A stretch of 57,090 nucleotides of DNA from Modicisalibacter coralii (GTDB lineage Bacteria; Pseudomonadota; Gammaproteobacteria; Pseudomonadales; Halomonadaceae). Below the pieces are notes generated by a model. The model saw only the letters and a program-made list of their open reading frames with translations, searched no databases and was not told the origin of the DNA. The first letter of the stretch is position 1; each line of letters opens with the position of its first letter. Below, one piece after another: positions 1 to 27,814 of the stretch. The stretch covers positions 1 to 57,090 of the forward strand of contig NZ_QWBW01000034.1 of assembly GCF_004117855.1 (NCBI RefSeq), written 5' to 3'. A program made the translations under genes and the position numbers.

Positions 1-328
1 CGTTGCCCGCTCCATTTTACGGTTCACTCAAGTTTGCTCCTCATCGCCACCCCGCATCAAGCCTTGATTCCTCGCCTTTTTCCTGTTCATTCGTGTTCGC
101 CGGTTGGCGTGCGTATGGTAGCCACGGCTGTATGGGGTCGTGTATGTTGGCTTTCCCAGCCACCCGTTGCCCGCTCCATTTTACGGTTCACTCAAGTTTG
201 CTCCTCATCGCCACCCCGCATCAAGCCTTGATTCCTCGCCTTTTTCCTGTTCATTCGTGTTCGCCGGTTGGCGTGCGTATGGTAGCCACGGCTGTATGGG
301 GTCGTGTATGTTGGCTTTCCCAGCCACC
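1..328. repeat. 164-bp perfect tandem duplication containing the putative attL core
   Basis: Positions 1-164 recur as 165-328 with no difference that I can see; each unit ends in CAGCCACC. The first 14 bases of each unit (CGTTGCCCGCTCCA) recur a third time at the other edge of the window (57076-57089), so this is the most likely attachment core. The duplication lies directly upstream of the integrase start at 347 and leaves no obvious Shine-Dalgarno sequence for it. It is open in several frames, but those frames look like chance ORFs. Confidence 0.85.
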
Positions 329-2458: not shown

Positions 2459-2670
2459 TCACCCTCCATCTCTTTCGCCAGCCCTGACGCCGTCCTCGAC
2501 ACCAGCAGGCATGCCGTGGCAAGGCAAAGGGACTGAAGCGTCGGCAGCGTCCACGCCCATCCATGAACGATCCAGTTCGCCAAAGCGGCGGCTCCTGATA
2601 CCAGCGCAGCGACGAACACGATGGCCTCAAGCCTTTTGATCATCCTGAGATTTTTTACCCGGATTTTCAC
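2455..2670 (-). CDS. small membrane protein
   Basis: About 71 aa with two hydrophobic stretches (AIVFVAALVSGAAALANWIV and TLQSLCLATACLLV) and a charged tail. The preferred start is GTG 2670, which overlaps the stop of the upstream gene as ATGTGA; an internal ATG (MIKRLEA) is the alternative. Function unknown. Confidence 0.55.
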   Translation of the reverse strand: MKIRVKNLRMIKRLEAIVFVAALVSGAAALANWIVHGWAWTLPTLQSLCLATACLLVSRTASGLAKEMEGE

Positions 2671-2900
2671 ATCGCCACCCTCACTTGCATGTGTGATAAC
2701 TGCGCCGTCACCCGCATGGCGACATGACCCCTTTGGCTCGTAACGTGCCACCCGCCGCATGACCGGCACGCGTAAATCGACATGCACGGCTTGCCGAATG
2801 CCGAGCAACTGCACATCGCAGCGGCCCGGGCTTCCTCCTCCGTGCTATATCGCAGCTTGGCGAGACAGCGCGGCTCGTCACGATAGCGGTGGGTGTTCAT
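2667..2900 (-). CDS. small Cys-rich phage protein cut off from its ribosome binding site
   Basis: About 77 aa, containing CSAFGKPCMSIYACRSCGGW, a likely zinc-binding knuckle seen in small phage proteins. The ATG at 2900 lies directly beside the left end of a tnpB element and has no Shine-Dalgarno sequence now. If the element (2903-4216) is removed, GGAGGACACTG from the upstream gene falls just before this ATG, a good site. Expression is therefore probably reduced since the insertion. Confidence 0.6.
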   Translation of the reverse strand: MNTHRYRDEPRCLAKLRYSTEEEARAAAMCSCSAFGKPCMSIYACRSCGGWHVTSQRGHVAMRVTAQLSHMQVRVAM

Positions 2901-2902
2901 CA

Positions 2903-4216
2903 ATTTTGCGCGAGATACCCCGTACTTTTAGTGCGGGGAGGGATAGCGCGTCGTCCGCAGGACGACCCTGTTCTCGCTGCCTCCTTCTCAGGTAGTTGCT
3001 ATCTTCACATTTTAGGGCATATGATGTGAGCTATGACGAAACGCGCCTATAAATACCGCTTCTACCCAACGTCTGAACAAGCGCAACTTCTTGCTCAGAC
3101 GTTCGGTTGTGTGCGTTTTGTCTACAACGCGGTGCTGCGCTGGCGTACTGACGCCTTCTACAAAGAGAAGGTCAGGGTTGGTTACGTCGCCGCCAACGCC
3201 CGCTTGACGGCCATGAAGAAAGACGCTGACCTGTCGTTTCTGAATGACGTATCTTGCGTCCCGCTTCAACAGGCGCTTAGGCATCAGCAGACGGCCTTCA
3301 AGAACTTCTTCGAGGGCCGCGCTCGCTACCCGAACTTCAAGAGCAAGCGGCACCGCCAGTCGGCGGAGTTCACTCGCTCGGCTTTCAAATACCGGGATGG
3401 TCAGCTGTTTCTTGCCAAGTGCAAGGAGCCTCTGTCGATCCGCTGGAGCCGTGAACTGCCCAGCGATCCGACGACCGTCACTGTTTCCAAGGACTCGGCA
3501 GGCCGATACTTCGTCAGCTGCCTGTGCGAGTTCGATCCCGAGACGCTTCCCGTCACCTCGAAGATGGTGGGCATCGATCTCGGCCTGAAAGACCTGTTCG
3601 TCACCAGCGACGGACATCGAATCGGCAATCCCCGTCATACGGCGAAATACGCTACTCGTCTGGCCAAGGCACAGCGACGGCTGAGCAAGAAGCGGCTCGG
3701 CTCCGCTAACCGTGCCAAGGCCAAGAAACGAGTGGCACGTATTCACGCCAAGATCTCCGATTGCCGAATGGATCTCTTGCACAAGCTGTCCCGCAGGCTG
3801 ATTAACGAGAACCAAGTAGTCTGCGTCGAATCCCTGAAAGTGAAGAACATGCTCCGCAATCCAACCCTGAGTAAGGCCATAAGCGATGCCGGCTGGGGTG
3901 AGTTCGTGCGCCAGTTGGAATACAAGGCGCAGTGGGCAGGGAGACAGTTGGTCAAGATCGACCAGTGGTATCCCAGCACCAAGCGCTGCTCGAATTGCGG
4001 ACACATTAAAGACGCGCTTCCGCTGAGCGTCCGCGTCTGGATCTGCCCCGCCTGCGGGGTCAACCACGACCGTGACATCAACGCTGCGCGTAATATCAAA
4101 GCCGCCGGGCTGGCGGTGTTAGCCCTTGGAGAGAATGTCAGTGGCATGGAGCAAGTCTCCGTGTCCAGTTCTCGGTGAATTGGGAATCCCCGTCCTTTAG
4201 GTCGGGGAGCAGTCAA
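2903..4216 (+). mobile_element. IS200/IS605-type tnpB-only element, copy 1
   Basis: A 1.3-kb element with no tnpA. The left end has an imperfect palindrome at 2918-2938 (CCCCGTAC, loop, GTGCGGGG); the right end has one at 4188-4207 (CCCCGTCC, loop, GGTCGGGG) and closes with GTCAA at 4216. Ends were placed by comparing the two copies: sequence similarity stops after GTCAA on the right, and on the left after a TCATCA that both copies share. As expected for this family there is no target duplication. It separates two leftward genes and supplies a TGA stop to the one at 4213-4542. Confidence 0.82.
3033..4178 (+). CDS. tnpB: TnpB RNA-guided endonuclease (IS605 OrfB family)
   Basis: 381 aa, the usual length for TnpB. 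An N-terminal HTH and OrfB_IS605 region is followed by the RuvC-like nuclease: Asp182 in GIDLGLKDL, Glu266 in VCVESLKVKNM, and the final acidic motif HDRDINAARNI (345-355). A zinc ribbon is formed by CSNCG (319) and CPACG (338). All catalytic residues appear intact. Known TnpB proteins cut DNA next to a TAM using an omega-RNA made from the element's right end. It is about 85% identical by eye to the second copy at 26319-27464, so the two are not recent duplicates. Confidence 0.93.
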   Translation: MTKRAYKYRFYPTSEQAQLLAQTFGCVRFVYNAVLRWRTDAFYKEKVRVGYVAANARLTAMKKDADLSFLNDVSCVPLQQALRHQQTAFKNFFEGRARYPNFKSKRHRQSAEFTRSAFKYRDGQLFLAKCKEPLSIRWSRELPSDPTTVTVSKDSAGRYFVSCLCEFDPETLPVTSKMVGIDLGLKDLFVTSDGHRIGNPRHTAKYATRLAKAQRRLSKKRLGSANRAKAKKRVARIHAKISDCRMDLLHKLSRRLINENQVVCVESLKVKNMLRNPTLSKAISDAGWGEFVRQLEYKAQWAGRQLVKIDQWYPSTKRCSNCGHIKDALPLSVRVWICPACGVNHDRDINAARNIKAAGLAVLALGENVSGMEQVSVSSSR

Positions 4217-4236
4217 GTGTCCTCCTCTGCCATAGC
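4080..4236 (+). ncRNA. putative omega-RNA (reRNA) scaffold and guide of tnpB copy 1
   Basis: Inferred from family knowledge: TnpB guide RNAs come from the 3' end of tnpB plus the right end, and the guide begins at the element boundary. Here the scaffold would end with the right-end palindrome and GTCAA at 4216, and the guide would start GTGTCCTCCTCTGCCA at 4217. The 5' limit is arbitrary. Confidence 0.4.
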
Positions 4237-4542
4237 GGCGGCAGCACGTACGATCGCGCGGCGGAAACCAGTGATGTCGTATTCATCGCAGATGGGGCAA
4301 GCGTTGAACGACATGTCCCCGACAACAGTGATGATCGGTTCACCTAGTTCGTTCTCGCCGCGATGGGTGTCGAGCTTCATGTCGTGCAACAGTCGAAACG
4401 CATCGCCGTCGTCTGCAAGTGGGTTCCATACCTCGAAACACCCATACTCATCTGTCCTTCCAACACCCCGCCACACGACATGATATTTACCATCTATGCC
4501 GGCAGCCCGCGCCGCCTTCTCCAGCAGTTCCTTGTCGTCCAT
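4213..4542 (-). CDS. hypothetical phage protein with 3' end replaced by the IS
   Basis: 109 aa of a type common in phage accessory regions: an N-terminal helix, then FEVWNPLADDGDAFRL, and a CPICDE pair. SD GAGGTGAGCG precedes ATG 4542. The stop codon TGA lies inside the GTCAA terminus of the tnpB element. In the reconstructed empty site the frame would continue about nine codons and overlap the next gene. Function unknown. Confidence 0.65.
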   Translation of the reverse strand: MDDKELLEKAARAAGIDGKYHVVWRGVGRTDEYGCFEVWNPLADDGDAFRLLHDMKLDTHRGENELGEPIITVVGDMSFNACPICDEYDITGFRRAIVRAAAAMAEEDT

Positions 4543-16333: not shown

Positions 16334-16449
16334 TGGCAGCCAGTGGGGGATTCGAACCCGAAGAAACCGCACACCATGCGCGAGCGGATAGCAGCTTCAC
16401 CATGTTCCTGACGCAAATTCAGGCGCTTTACCGTTAAGCTAACTGGCTG
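16334..16449 (-). tRNA. tRNA-like RNA 2 with encoded CCA and oversized variable region
   Basis: Leftward strand: acceptor CAGCCAGT paired with ACTGGCTG (8 bp), followed by encoded CCA; D arm GCTT, AACGGTA, AAGC; anticodon arm CCTGA, ATTTGCG, TCAGG. The T loop GGGTTCGAATCCC is present but only three base pairs of its stem hold. Between anticodon and T arms lie about 46 nt instead of 4-24, including a repeated CATGGTG. A strict 7-nt loop gives anticodon TTG, with an unusual C37. Possibly a tRNA with an insertion, or no longer functional. Confidence 0.6.
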
Positions 16450-25707: not shown

Positions 25708-25892
25708 TCATGGTAAGCGAACCGGCTGCGCGGCGGCTGGCGAGGGCACGTGACGCCATTTTGAATTCCGTTCAACGAGATGGCGTAACGGATGTCGAGA
25801 TCGGCGCAGCCATGTGGGAGTTCGATGAAGCGGCGAATGCACTGGCCGACGATCTGATCGCCGACAACCACCACCTGACCGAGGGCGACTGA
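25704..25892 (+). CDS. 62-aa helical protein
   Basis: GTG start overlapping the previous stop, behind GGGAGGAG; then an all-helical acidic protein (EIGAAMWEFDEAANALADDL). Function unknown. Confidence 0.55.
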   Translation: MIMVSEPAARRLARARDAILNSVQRDGVTDVEIGAAMWEFDEAANALADDLIADNHHLTEGD

Positions 25893-26284
25893 TGGGCAAG
25901 ACCTCCCGCACCAAGGGCGCCAAGGGCGAGCTGCAACTGGCCGCCCTGCTCAACGAGCGCTTAGGCCTCTCCCTCACTCGCCGCCTCGCTCAGTACCAGT
26001 CAGGCGGGCACGACCTCGACGGCTGGGAAGGCGTGCACGTCGAGAGCAAGCGCAATCGCACGGCGACCCAGGGCCAGATCACCGGCTGGTGGCATCAGAC
26101 CCTGGAGCAATGCCCCGGTGGCGAGACGCCTGTGCTGGCCTACCGGGCAGATCGGCAGGATTGGCGGTTCGTCATCCGCCCCAGCGACTGGTCCGGGCCT
26201 ACTCACGAGCCTATTGAGGTGACGATTGACGGGTTCGTTGAGTGGGTCAGGCATGGTCGGCAGCTCAAGATGGAGGCGCTTTGA
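25892..26284 (+). CDS. Holliday-junction resolvase-like nuclease, 3' end set by the IS
   Basis: 130 aa. KGAKGELQLAALLNERLGL, SGGHDLDGWEGVHVESKRNR gives the E, D and E-x-K of a PD-(D/E)XK junction resolvase, and GQITGWWHQTLEQCPGGETP fits this phage family, which takes the place of RusA. The stop TGA lies in the TTGAC terminus of the second tnpB element (from 26281). In the reconstructed empty site the frame would continue into the downstream gene region, so the C-terminus here is altered. Confidence 0.75.
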   Translation: MGKTSRTKGAKGELQLAALLNERLGLSLTRRLAQYQSGGHDLDGWEGVHVESKRNRTATQGQITGWWHQTLEQCPGGETPVLAYRADRQDWRFVIRPSDWSGPTHEPIEVTIDGFVEWVRHGRQLKMEAL

Positions 26285-26420
26285 CCGCTCCCCGCCCTGA
26301 AGGACGGGGATTCCCAATTCAGCGAGAACCGGACATAGATACTTGACCCATGCCGCTTACATTCTCTTCAAGGGCTAACACGGCCAGCCCGGCCGCTTTG
26401 ATATTGCGCGCTGCGTTAAT
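26265..26420 (-). ncRNA. putative omega-RNA scaffold and guide of tnpB copy 2
   Basis: By analogy with known TnpB guides: scaffold from the 3' end of tnpB to the right-end terminus at 26281, guide beginning AGCGCCTCCATCTTGAG from 26280 leftward, which is antisense to the resolvase-like gene. The 5' limit is arbitrary. Confidence 0.4.
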
Positions 26421-27561
26421 GTCGCGGTCATGGGTAGTGCCACATTCCGGGCAACCCCAAGCGCGAATGTTCAGCGGCAATGCATCTTTGGTGTGTCCGC
26501 AATCCGAGCAGCGTTTTGAGCTGGGATACCACTGGTCAATAGCGACCAGTTGGCGTCCTGCCCATTGCGCTTTGTATTCAAGCTGGCGCACGAACTCGCC
26601 CCAGCTTGCATCGGCAATGGCTTTGCTCAGCGTCGGATTGCGGATCATGTTCTTCACTTTCAGGGATTCGACGCAGATCACTTGGTTCTCGTTAATCAAT
26701 CTGCGGGACAGCTTGTGGAGTCTGTCCATCCGGCAATCGGAGATTTTGGCGTGAATACGCGCAACCTTTTGCTTGGCCTTGGCACGGTTAGCGGAGCCGA
26801 GCTTCTTCTTGCTAAGCCTGCGTTGTGCCTTGGCAAGCCTGGCGGCGTATTTCGCCGTATGGCGGGGATTGCCGATCCTTTCTCCCTGGTCGGTGACAAA
26901 CAGGTCTTTCAGGCCAAGATCAATGCCCACCATCTTCGGTGTGACGGGCAGCGTCTCGACATCGAACTCGCACAGGCACGATACGAAGTACCGGCCCGCC
27001 GAATCCTTGGAAATAGTAATCGTGCTGGGTTCGCTGGGGAGTTCACGGCTCCAGCGGACATTAAGCGGCGTCTTGCTCTTGGCCAGAAACAACTGGCCAT
27101 CGCGGTACTTGAACGCGGAGCGGGTAAATTCTGCCGACTGGCGATGCCGCTTGCTTTTGAAGGTCGGATACTTCGCGCGTCCTTCAAAGAAGTTCTTGAA
27201 CGCCGACTGCTGGTGACGCAGACATTGTTGCAACGGAACGCAAGACACTTCATTCAGAAAGGCCGTGTCAGGCGTCTTCTTCATTTTTGTCAGGTAGGCG
27301 TTGGCCTCGATATAGCCAATCTTCTCCTGCTGCTGATAGAAGGCATCGGCGCGGTAACGCAGCACTGCATTGTAGACGAAGCGCACGCACCCGAAAGTCC
27401 GGGCAAGCAACTGCTCTTGCTCGGGCGTCGGGTAAAAACGGTACTTGTATGCGCGTTTAGTCATGCGTCACATTATATCTAAGATTTTGTGATAACATCA
27501 ACCCAAGGAGGCGCGCATTCCTCCCCGCACTAAAAGTACGGGGTATCCAGCGCGAAAAATC
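26281..27561 (-). mobile_element. IS200/IS605-type tnpB-only element, copy 2
   Basis: 1.28 kb, opposite orientation to copy 1. Right end at 26281 (TTGAC, palindrome 26290-26309); left-end palindrome 27523-27543. On the element's strand the left end again follows TCATCA (plus-strand TGATGA at 27562-27567). No tnpA. Inserted after the resolvase-like gene and before the gene at 27626; the empty site would read GGAGGCGCTTGATGA, the same Shine-Dalgarno/start layout as at copy 1. Confidence 0.82.
26319..27464 (-). CDS. tnpB: TnpB RNA-guided endonuclease (IS605 OrfB family)
   Basis: 381 aa, colinear with copy 1. Catalytic motifs GIDLGLKDLFV, VCVESLKVKNM and HDRDINAARNI and zinc-ribbon Cys pairs (CSDCG, CPECG) are all present, so it looks active. 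Differences from copy 1 are scattered substitutions, for example in residues 37-66, pointing to separate arrivals. In other elements such proteins keep the IS at its site by cutting empty copies. Confidence 0.93.
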   Translation of the reverse strand: MTKRAYKYRFYPTPEQEQLLARTFGCVRFVYNAVLRYRADAFYQQQEKIGYIEANAYLTKMKKTPDTAFLNEVSCVPLQQCLRHQQSAFKNFFEGRAKYPTFKSKRHRQSAEFTRSAFKYRDGQLFLAKSKTPLNVRWSRELPSEPSTITISKDSAGRYFVSCLCEFDVETLPVTPKMVGIDLGLKDLFVTDQGERIGNPRHTAKYAARLAKAQRRLSKKKLGSANRAKAKQKVARIHAKISDCRMDRLHKLSRRLINENQVICVESLKVKNMIRNPTLSKAIADASWGEFVRQLEYKAQWAGRQLVAIDQWYPSSKRCSDCGHTKDALPLNIRAWGCPECGTTHDRDINAARNIKAAGLAVLALEENVSGMGQVSMSGSR

Positions 27562-27625
27562 TGATGACAGACACCACCGAGAAACCGCCGTCACGGCGCT
27601 ACGTGAACTGTCCGAGGCCGCAGCG

Positions 27626-27814
27626 ATGAAGTGGACCAAGGTCAATCCGTACTGCATCCGGGCAGGCGAGTATCAGATCACGAAGTTCACGCTCGGCGGC
27701 GAGGATTTGTACCTCGTCTATCACCAGGGCGAACAGATCGGTAACGCCAGGGACGGCAACGCGGCGCGGAAAGTGGCAATCAAGCACTCAGATAAGCAAG
27801 GGGTGGAATCATGA
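27626..27814 (+). CDS. hypothetical small protein downstream of the IS
   Basis: 62 aa: MKWTKVNPYCIRAGEYQITK then FTLGGEDLYLVYHQGEQIGN, a compact beta protein of a common phage type. Its frame is open back into the IS left end (RETAVTALRELSEAAA precedes the ATG), so the native gene may have begun further upstream or been fused to the resolvase frame. A 21-codon alternative ORF (27564-27629) ends on its ATG. No good SD for 27626. Confidence 0.6.
   Translation: MKWTKVNPYCIRAGEYQITKFTLGGEDLYLVYHQGEQIGNARDGNAARKVAIKHSDKQGVES

What the first reader, a model, noticed from the sequence alone, without database searches (positions are those of the whole stretch)
2897..4236. tnpB copy 1: exact ends, candidate TAM (TCATCA) and predicted guide
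Comparing the two tnpB elements in this window fixes their ends without outside data. Both right ends stop after GTCAA, and both left ends are preceded by TCATCA. Family knowledge (IS200/IS605 insert 3' of a short motif that is also the TnpB TAM; the guide starts at the right-end boundary) then predicts TAM TCATCA and a guide beginning GTGTCCTCCTCTGCCA. Removing 2903-4216 restores GGAGGACACTGATGA, a good Shine-Dalgarno site and start codon for the gene at 2900, which supports the chosen ends independently.
Basis: partly seen in the sequence, partly recalled or inferred. Interest (0 to 1): 0.78.

Follow-up and report, generated by a model that had tools for sequence, protein, structure and literature searches.

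The report
Orphan TnpB element, target TCAT
A small mobile element that encodes a predicted RNA-guided DNA-cutting enzyme sits in a predicted bacterial virus genome; relatives that lack such elements show that the family inserts right after the letters TCAT (not TCATCA), which often places it just in front of a gene's start codon.

Summary
Real feature, mostly well read; the left boundary is off by 2 nt. Copy 1 is an orphan tnpB element (IS1341-type, IS200/IS605 family) at 2901-4216; copy 2 is at 26281-27563 (-). The right end GTCAA| and the guide start GTGTCCTCC hold. TAM TCATCA does not. At three insertion sites of relatives, 63 empty alleles (39 viral contigs, 9 and 15 same-family loci) read TCAT joined to the right flank. 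Among 73 distinct insertions the target is TCAT in 66, but the next two letters vary. A four-letter guide beside the left hairpin predicts the target by IS608-like pairing (70 of 88 left ends, permutation maximum 62). Cutting at TCAT restores an ATGA stop/start overlap for the neighbours of both window copies; TCATCA does not. No empty site of the window copies themselves was found, and the genome has no TnpA. Insertions lie at antisense start codons more often than other TCAT sites (28 of 68 against 284 of 2547), so guides often address a ribosome-binding region. Guide RNA, TAM use and cleavage are inferred.

The parts
2897..2900 (+). Left cleavage site / predicted TAM: TCAT. On the other strand it is ATGA, with the start codon of the neighbouring gene
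2901..4216 (+). Copy 1 of the orphan tnpB element (IS1341-type, IS200/IS605 family), 1316 bp
   Evidence: left end set by analogy with empty sites of relatives
2914..2917 (+). Left guide GL = GATA, pairing with TCAT (GA:TC, and last A:T)
   Evidence: pairing scheme of IS608 from PMC5934647 passages
2918..2938 (+). Left hairpin CCCCGTAC-TTTTA-GTGCGGGG
2908..2980 (+). Left-end three-way-junction fold (outer stem, left hairpin, second hairpin), with compensatory changes among 21 relatives
   Evidence: z -3.97
3033..4178 (+). tnpB, 381 aa; RuvC residues D182/E266/D348 by motif and alignment; two CxxC pairs
4184..4187 (+). Right guide GR = GAAT, same letters as IS608
4188..4207 (+). Right hairpin CCCCGTCC-TTTA-GGTCGGGG; part of the predicted guide-RNA scaffold
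   Evidence: (alone z only -1.6)
4213..4216 (+). Right cleavage site CR = TCAA (last bases of the element); on the - strand TTGA, which supplies the stop codon of the upstream neighbour
4217..4232 (+). Predicted 16-nt guide GTGTCCTCCTCTGCCA (complement of the neighbour's ribosome-binding region)
   Evidence: sequence; guide position by homology to ISDra2 TnpB (PMC8612924 passages); not shown experimentally
4213..4542 (-). Upstream neighbour, 109 aa, ends ...EEDT with or without the element
2667..2900 (-). Downstream neighbour, 77 aa (MNTHRYRD...); start codon kept but separated from its Shine-Dalgarno site
26281..27563 (-). Copy 2, 1283 bp; left flank TCAT (27567-27564), right end GTCAA, predicted guide AGCGCCTCCATCTTGA (26280-26265)
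25892..26284 (+). Upstream neighbour of copy 2, 130 aa, ends ...MEAL with or without the element
27564..27629 (+). Downstream neighbour of copy 2, 21-aa ORF MTDTTEKPPSRRYVNCPRPQR; a similar 21-aa ORF starts at the equivalent ATG in same-genus genome G007

Best explanation
Copy 1 is an orphan IS200/IS605-family (IS1341-type) element that carries only tnpB. A Y1 transposase supplied in trans (inferred; none was found in this genome) excises and inserts it as single-stranded DNA. The guide GATA beside the left hairpin selects the target TCAT, and the element joins directly after that T. Its right end, TCAA, is selected by GAAT. The 3' end of the tnpB transcript should give a guide RNA whose spacer is the first 16-20 nt of right flank. 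TnpB should then cut TCAT + GTGTCCTCCTCTGCCA, the empty site, so that the element is copied back or empty relatives are destroyed; the filled site reads TCAA at that place and should be spared. Shown by comparison with relatives: the right end, the target TCAT and the target code. Inferred: the left end of the window copies themselves (by analogy), and from homology the single-strand mechanism, guide RNA, TAM use, cleavage and retention.
For: Empty sites: 39 of 39 pattern matches have 0 nt between TCAT and the right flank although 0-2 were allowed; 37 of 39 align across the junction with each of two queries. At two chromosomal sites 9 of 11 and 15 of 15 loci read align through TCAT|; the other two of 11 hold the two flanks apart, as in a filled site. 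Targets at 73 insertions: TCAT 66, CCAT 3, TTAT 2, TCCT 1, TCGT 1, followed by CA 49, CT 16, CG 7, AA 1. Guide code: 70 of 88 unique left ends obey the three-pair rule, permutation maximum 62 in 10,000; 12 of 18 non-TCAT ends, permutation maximum 6. CR TCAA and GR GAAT equal those of IS608 (PMC5934647, Figure 1 legend, passage seen). TnpB: 390 bits to NCBIfam guided_TnpB (cut-off 100), 405 bits to IS200_TnpB (under its cut-off of 425), E 3e-77 to ISDra2 TnpB chains. Both window copies give an ATGA stop/start overlap when cut at TCAT.
Against: No empty site for the window copies: 0 in viral contigs for the copy-1 pattern (no such scan was made for copy 2), none in 275 family genomes (where only two candidates per genome were scored; three short cross-junction hits were read as chance). 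No Y1_Tnp match in the genome, so transposition now would need a donor. Exceptions to the guide code: L074 (TTAT with GATA), L105 and L057 (CCAT with GAAA), L079 and L151 (GAAG); the other misses look like hairpin-register errors of the script, which I judged by eye. The element starts of eight extra loci were set by eye, and most left ends were found with a TCAT-like pattern, so the target counts lean towards TCAT.
Confidence: 0.9

Rival explanations
1. One reading: target and TAM TCATCA, element 2903-4216.
For: Both window copies read TCATCA before the homology; 43 of 73 distinct insertions read TCATCA.
Against: Empty sites of relatives read TCAT joined to the right flank, with no CA. The two letters go with the element lineage (CT throughout the near-identical L116-L122, L126-L128 group at different sites). 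Cutting there loses both ATGA overlaps.
Confidence: 0.03
2. The TAM used by TnpB is longer or looser than the TnpA target, for example TTCAT or NCAT.
For: T is the commonest base before the target, 36 of 73. ISDra2 uses five letters, TTGAT, for both (PMC8612924 passages). SfaTnpB takes NTAC (PMC12781874 passage).
Against: Copy 1 has T and copy 2 has G before TCAT; ATGAA is a usual gene start (recalled), so the T can come from start-codon sites.
Confidence: 0.25
3. The element is a relic: no transposase, TnpB idle.
For: No Y1_Tnp match in the genome; the two copies are only 79% alike, so they are old or separately acquired.
Against: Both tnpB ORFs are open over 381 aa and both copies keep their ends; catalytic motifs are present in copy 1 and, by reading, in the translation of copy 2.
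Confidence: 0.2
4. TnpB here is a nuclease-dead regulator of the TldR kind.
For: Viral setting, and guides that often address ribosome-binding regions.
Against: RuvC motifs GIDLG, VESL and HDRDIN are present.
Confidence: 0.02

Closest known systems
IS608 (IS200/IS605 family)
   Same: CR TCAA and GR GAAT identical; a guide beside each hairpin pairs with a four-letter cleavage site; insertion 3' of the target without duplication
   Different: CL TCAT with GL GATA instead of TTAC with AAAG; no tnpA here
ISDra2 TnpB (8bf8, 8ex9, 8exa, 8h1j)
   Same: Closest chains apart from an AI-designed nuclease (E 3e-77); RNA-guided nuclease whose TAM equals the insertion target (PMC8612924 passages)
   Different: ISDra2 has its own tnpA and the target TTGAT
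IS1341-type orphan tnpB elements
   Same: tnpB alone between two hairpin ends
   Different: No difference in kind seen. A TCAT target was not met in the held library: no paper holds TnpB, TAM, TCAT and IS605 together or TCAT and IS1341 together; supplementary tables and most subscription papers were not searched
TnpB-driven gene drive of IS in plasmids (PMC11870625, preprint, abstract and passages seen)
   Same: The guide targets the IS-free copy of the same site
   Different: Shown there for plasmids; the parallel for phages is only inferred here

Membership tests
IS200/IS605 family | Subterminal hairpins at both ends | tested here: met
   (the right hairpin alone is weak, z -1.6, but conserved with compensatory changes)
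IS200/IS605 family | Insertion 3' of a short fixed target, no target duplication | tested here: met
   Empty sites of relatives at three sites; not directly for the window copies
IS200/IS605 family | Guide sequence pairs with cleavage site | tested here: met
   70 of 88 left ends, permutation maximum 62; CR/GR as IS608
IS200/IS605 family | Y1 transposase TnpA in the element | tested here: not met
   No PF01797 match in the own genome, 5 of 14 control genomes positive; hence filed as IS1341-type orphan, a recognised tnpB-only group (PMC9956272 passages), and not as an autonomous IS605 element
TnpB RNA-guided nucleases | RuvC catalytic residues and zinc ribbon | tested here: met
TnpB RNA-guided nucleases | Guide RNA from the right end | tested here: inconclusive
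   Conserved fold at the right end (largely inside the coding sequence); weak sub-threshold Rfam RF02656 match on copy 2, E 0.25
TnpB RNA-guided nucleases | TAM-dependent DNA cleavage | not testable with these tools
   needs an assay
TldR (nuclease-dead TnpB) | Lost RuvC residues | tested here: not met

The most novel reading that the evidence does not exclude
This TnpB lineage is suited to gene starts. Its target TCAT is ATGA read backwards, so it often lands between a gene's Shine-Dalgarno site and its start codon, and its right end TCAA can supply an in-frame stop (TTGA) for an overlapping upstream gene, so that neighbouring coding sequences survive. The guides are then addressed to the translation start of a gene in element-free relatives: an address suited to a gene drive among phages, and a ready starting point for TldR-like repressors once nuclease activity is lost.
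Probability: 0.3. Interest if true: 0.6.

Novelty: new member of a known kind. Interest (0 to 1): 0.4.

Why it matters
It replaces a six-letter TAM guess by a four-letter one that rests on 63 empty alleles at three sites, and shows a simple code (the left guide predicts the target) by which targets of orphan TnpB elements can be read from sequence. The start-codon bias, and the 39 element-free contigs that match a guide exactly, make the gene-drive idea for phages directly testable.

Tried and rejected
TCATCA as TAM: rejected (empty sites of relatives). Direct empty sites for the window copies: not found; short cross-junction hits in G086 (copy 1), G079 and G081 (copy 2) looked like empty sites at first, but their translations read as unrelated host genes. 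A pattern scan of viral contigs for copy 1 found nothing. A search with the upstream neighbour gave the window itself and one distant relative (38% identity) without this junction. Right-flank relatives of copy 2 in G054, G061 and G062 do not continue into the left-flank gene.

A crude gene caller left 46 of 72 classified insertions undecided, so the start-codon test rests on open-frame lengths. A first version used wrong right ends for some loci and was redone. A regex count of catalytic motifs over 100 relatives (67 passed) was too strict to interpret and is not used. Start-codon bias as mere avoidance of genes does not suffice: among sites without a frame of 100 codons open on both sides, start-like sites are still 25 of 54 against 151 of 1110. 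Against a simple survival story: insertions that look inside an antisense gene are not rarer than at control sites by the in-frame test (16 of 68 against 377 of 2547), though frames crossing the site are rarer by the six-frame test (12 of 66 against 569 of 1679 at 100 codons). The ATGA-overlap test with a Shine-Dalgarno motif is modest: 6 of 68 against 53 of 2547.

Full report
What is there. The window is one whole contig (C27) of a 4.44-Mb genome in 74 contigs, and a viral contig of the same length is held in IMG/VR. Its bacterial family includes genome G021, which carries both flanks of the Chromohalobacter canadensis locus L072 at 99-100%; I take the host to be a member of the Halomonadaceae (inference). 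Two tnpB elements lie in the window, 79% alike. TnpB copy 1 (381 aa) has three Pfam domains of the family, 390 bits to NCBIfam guided_TnpB (cut-off 100) and 405 to IS200_TnpB, under that model's cut-off of 425. Among solved structures it is closest to an AI-designed nuclease and to ISDra2 TnpB. GIDLG, VESL and HDRDIN place the RuvC residues at D182, E266 and D348. The genome has no match to the Y1 transposase model PF01797, while 5 of 14 control genomes have one.

Right end. In 112 of 125 related loci GTCAA follows within 110 nt of the tnpB stop, and what comes next differs between sites. The 13 others are distant families with other ends (L061, L062, L065, L067, L068, L070), loci cut short or with a longer or unreadable tail (L112, L124, L125, L132, L136, L138), and one without a stop (L137). 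The right end, and the predicted guide start at 4217, are sound.

Left end. From the 125 loci (45 viral, 80 genome; the window's two copies are among them) I dropped 8 below 55% identity, 11 with a left end that I could not read (L053, L054, L069, L071, L110, L113, L114, L115, L139, L145, L147), L107, 5 without a right end found (L124, L125, L132, L137, L138), 24 repeats of a site already counted and 3 with too little flank (L136, L146, L149). This left 73 distinct insertions. The four letters before the element are TCAT in 66, CCAT 3, TTAT 2, TCCT 1 and TCGT 1; the next two are CA 49, CT 16, CG 7 and AA 1. Most element starts were found with a TCAT-like pattern and some were set by hand, so these counts lean towards TCAT; the empty sites carry the argument.

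Empty sites. A pattern of TCAT + 0 to 2 free letters + 19 nt of right flank found 39 stretches of viral contigs, all with 0 free letters; 37 of 39 align across the junction with each of two queries. The filled counterparts L030-L044 match Pseudomonas aeruginosa phages phita81A, 5371, 5399 and PACT201 (52 phage records match the query, 4 of them over at least 80% of it). For two chromosomal insertions I searched 275 genomes of the family with joined flanks (61 and 91 genomes with any match). Of the 15 loci fetched for the first site I read 11 (the other four matches do not reach the junction): 9 run through TCAT| into the right flank, two hold the flanks apart. Of the 15 fetched for the second site all 15 run through. 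Three independent sites give the same boundary. For the window copies no empty site was found, so their left ends are by analogy.

Guide code. In IS608 the cleavage sites TTAC and TCAA pair with guides AAAG and GAAT beside the hairpins (PMC5934647, passages seen). Here the right guide is GAAT and the right site TCAA, the same letters. On the left, TCAT goes with GATA, GAAA or GAGA. With eight loci added (element starts set by eye), TTAT goes with AAAA, AATA or AAGA, TTAC with AAAG, TTAG with AAAC. The rule CL1:GL2, CL2:GL1, CL4:GL4 holds in 70 of 88 unique left ends scored by script (permutation mean 52, maximum 62 in 10,000) and in 12 of 18 ends with other targets (mean 2.3, maximum 6). By eye, L260 (TTAC, AAAG), L274 (TGAT, CAAA) and L253 (TTAT, AAAA), which the script misread, also fit. 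L074, L105, L057, L079 and L151 are exceptions or possible exceptions. Related sequences are not independent events, so the permutation overstates the certainty.

The window's own genes. Cut at TCAT, the upstream gene of copy 1 ends ...EEDT with its TGA inside ATGA, and the next gene starts at that ATG (MNTHRYRD...). Cut at TCATCA, the upstream frame runs on. Copy 2 behaves the same way (...MEAL, then MTDTTEK...; the TCATCA cut for copy 2 was worked out by hand). Same-genus genome G007 has a similar 21-aa ORF that starts at the equivalent ATG after GGGAGGGAAA. With the element in place, TTGA on the reverse strand of its right end gives each upstream gene a stop in the same frame, so EEDT and MEAL are unchanged.

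Start-codon bias. For 68 insertions with enough flank, an open frame of 60 or more codons that starts at the antisense ATG and is closed within 30 codons upstream occurs in 28, against 284 of 2547 other TCAT sites in the same flanks (odds ratio 5.6, P 5e-10); with a Shine-Dalgarno-like motif, 14 against 93. Among sites with no frame of 100 codons open on both sides it is 25 of 54 against 151 of 1110. Some of these sites read to me like the starts of selB, rsmE, tex and a UDP-glucose dehydrogenase gene (translations; names recalled, not searched). Start codons were judged from open frames, not annotation; control sites are not independent; whether the bias comes from targeting or from survival is open. 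Two searches of the held papers for start-codon insertion of such elements listed 3 and 6 papers, none of which appears from its title and abstract start to treat it (listings only).

How it probably works. A transposase from elsewhere moves the element between TCAT sites. TnpB, guided by the right flank, cuts the empty site TCAT + flank and spares the filled site, which reads TCAA. In the own genome the best match to TCAT + the first 15 nt of guide (up to 3 mismatches) is the element's own right end with one mismatch; two other places have three. This is the retention model of PMC8612924 (passages seen); the plasmid gene-drive preprint PMC11870625 (abstract and passages seen) supports a wider use. 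The phages with and without the element at one site are a natural pair for testing it.

Noticed in passing
window 1-328: Exact tandem repeat of 164 bases at the contig start (1-164 = 165-328); possibly an assembly artefact.
   Followed up: no
window 16337-16448 (-): tRNA-like gene above Rfam's threshold (37.7 bits, threshold 29) with an insertion of about 43 nt in the variable region; ARAGORN does not call it.
   Followed up: partly
window 2908-2980: The left end of copy 1 folds into a three-way junction (z -3.97) with compensatory changes in the outer stem and second hairpin among 21 relatives; copy 2 has a shorter left end without the second hairpin.
   Followed up: partly
window 26289-26480 (-): Sub-threshold Rfam match (21 bits, threshold 88, E 0.25) of the 3' end of copy 2 to RF02656 sot0042, a sense-overlapping transcript.
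   Followed up: no
L030-L044 (filled, 15 loci) and L152-L190 (empty, 39 loci): One phage insertion site seen both with and without the element; 39 element-free stretches match TCAT + the first 19 nt of the guide exactly, a natural TnpB target population.
   Followed up: partly
L275 (phita81A) 2818-3183 (-): An annotated phage gene ends inside the element's right end, as the upstream neighbours in the window do.
   Followed up: no
L257, L265: Relatives with target/guide pairs TTAC/AAAG (as IS608) and TTAG/AAAC, consistent with a readable target code across this TnpB group.
   Followed up: partly
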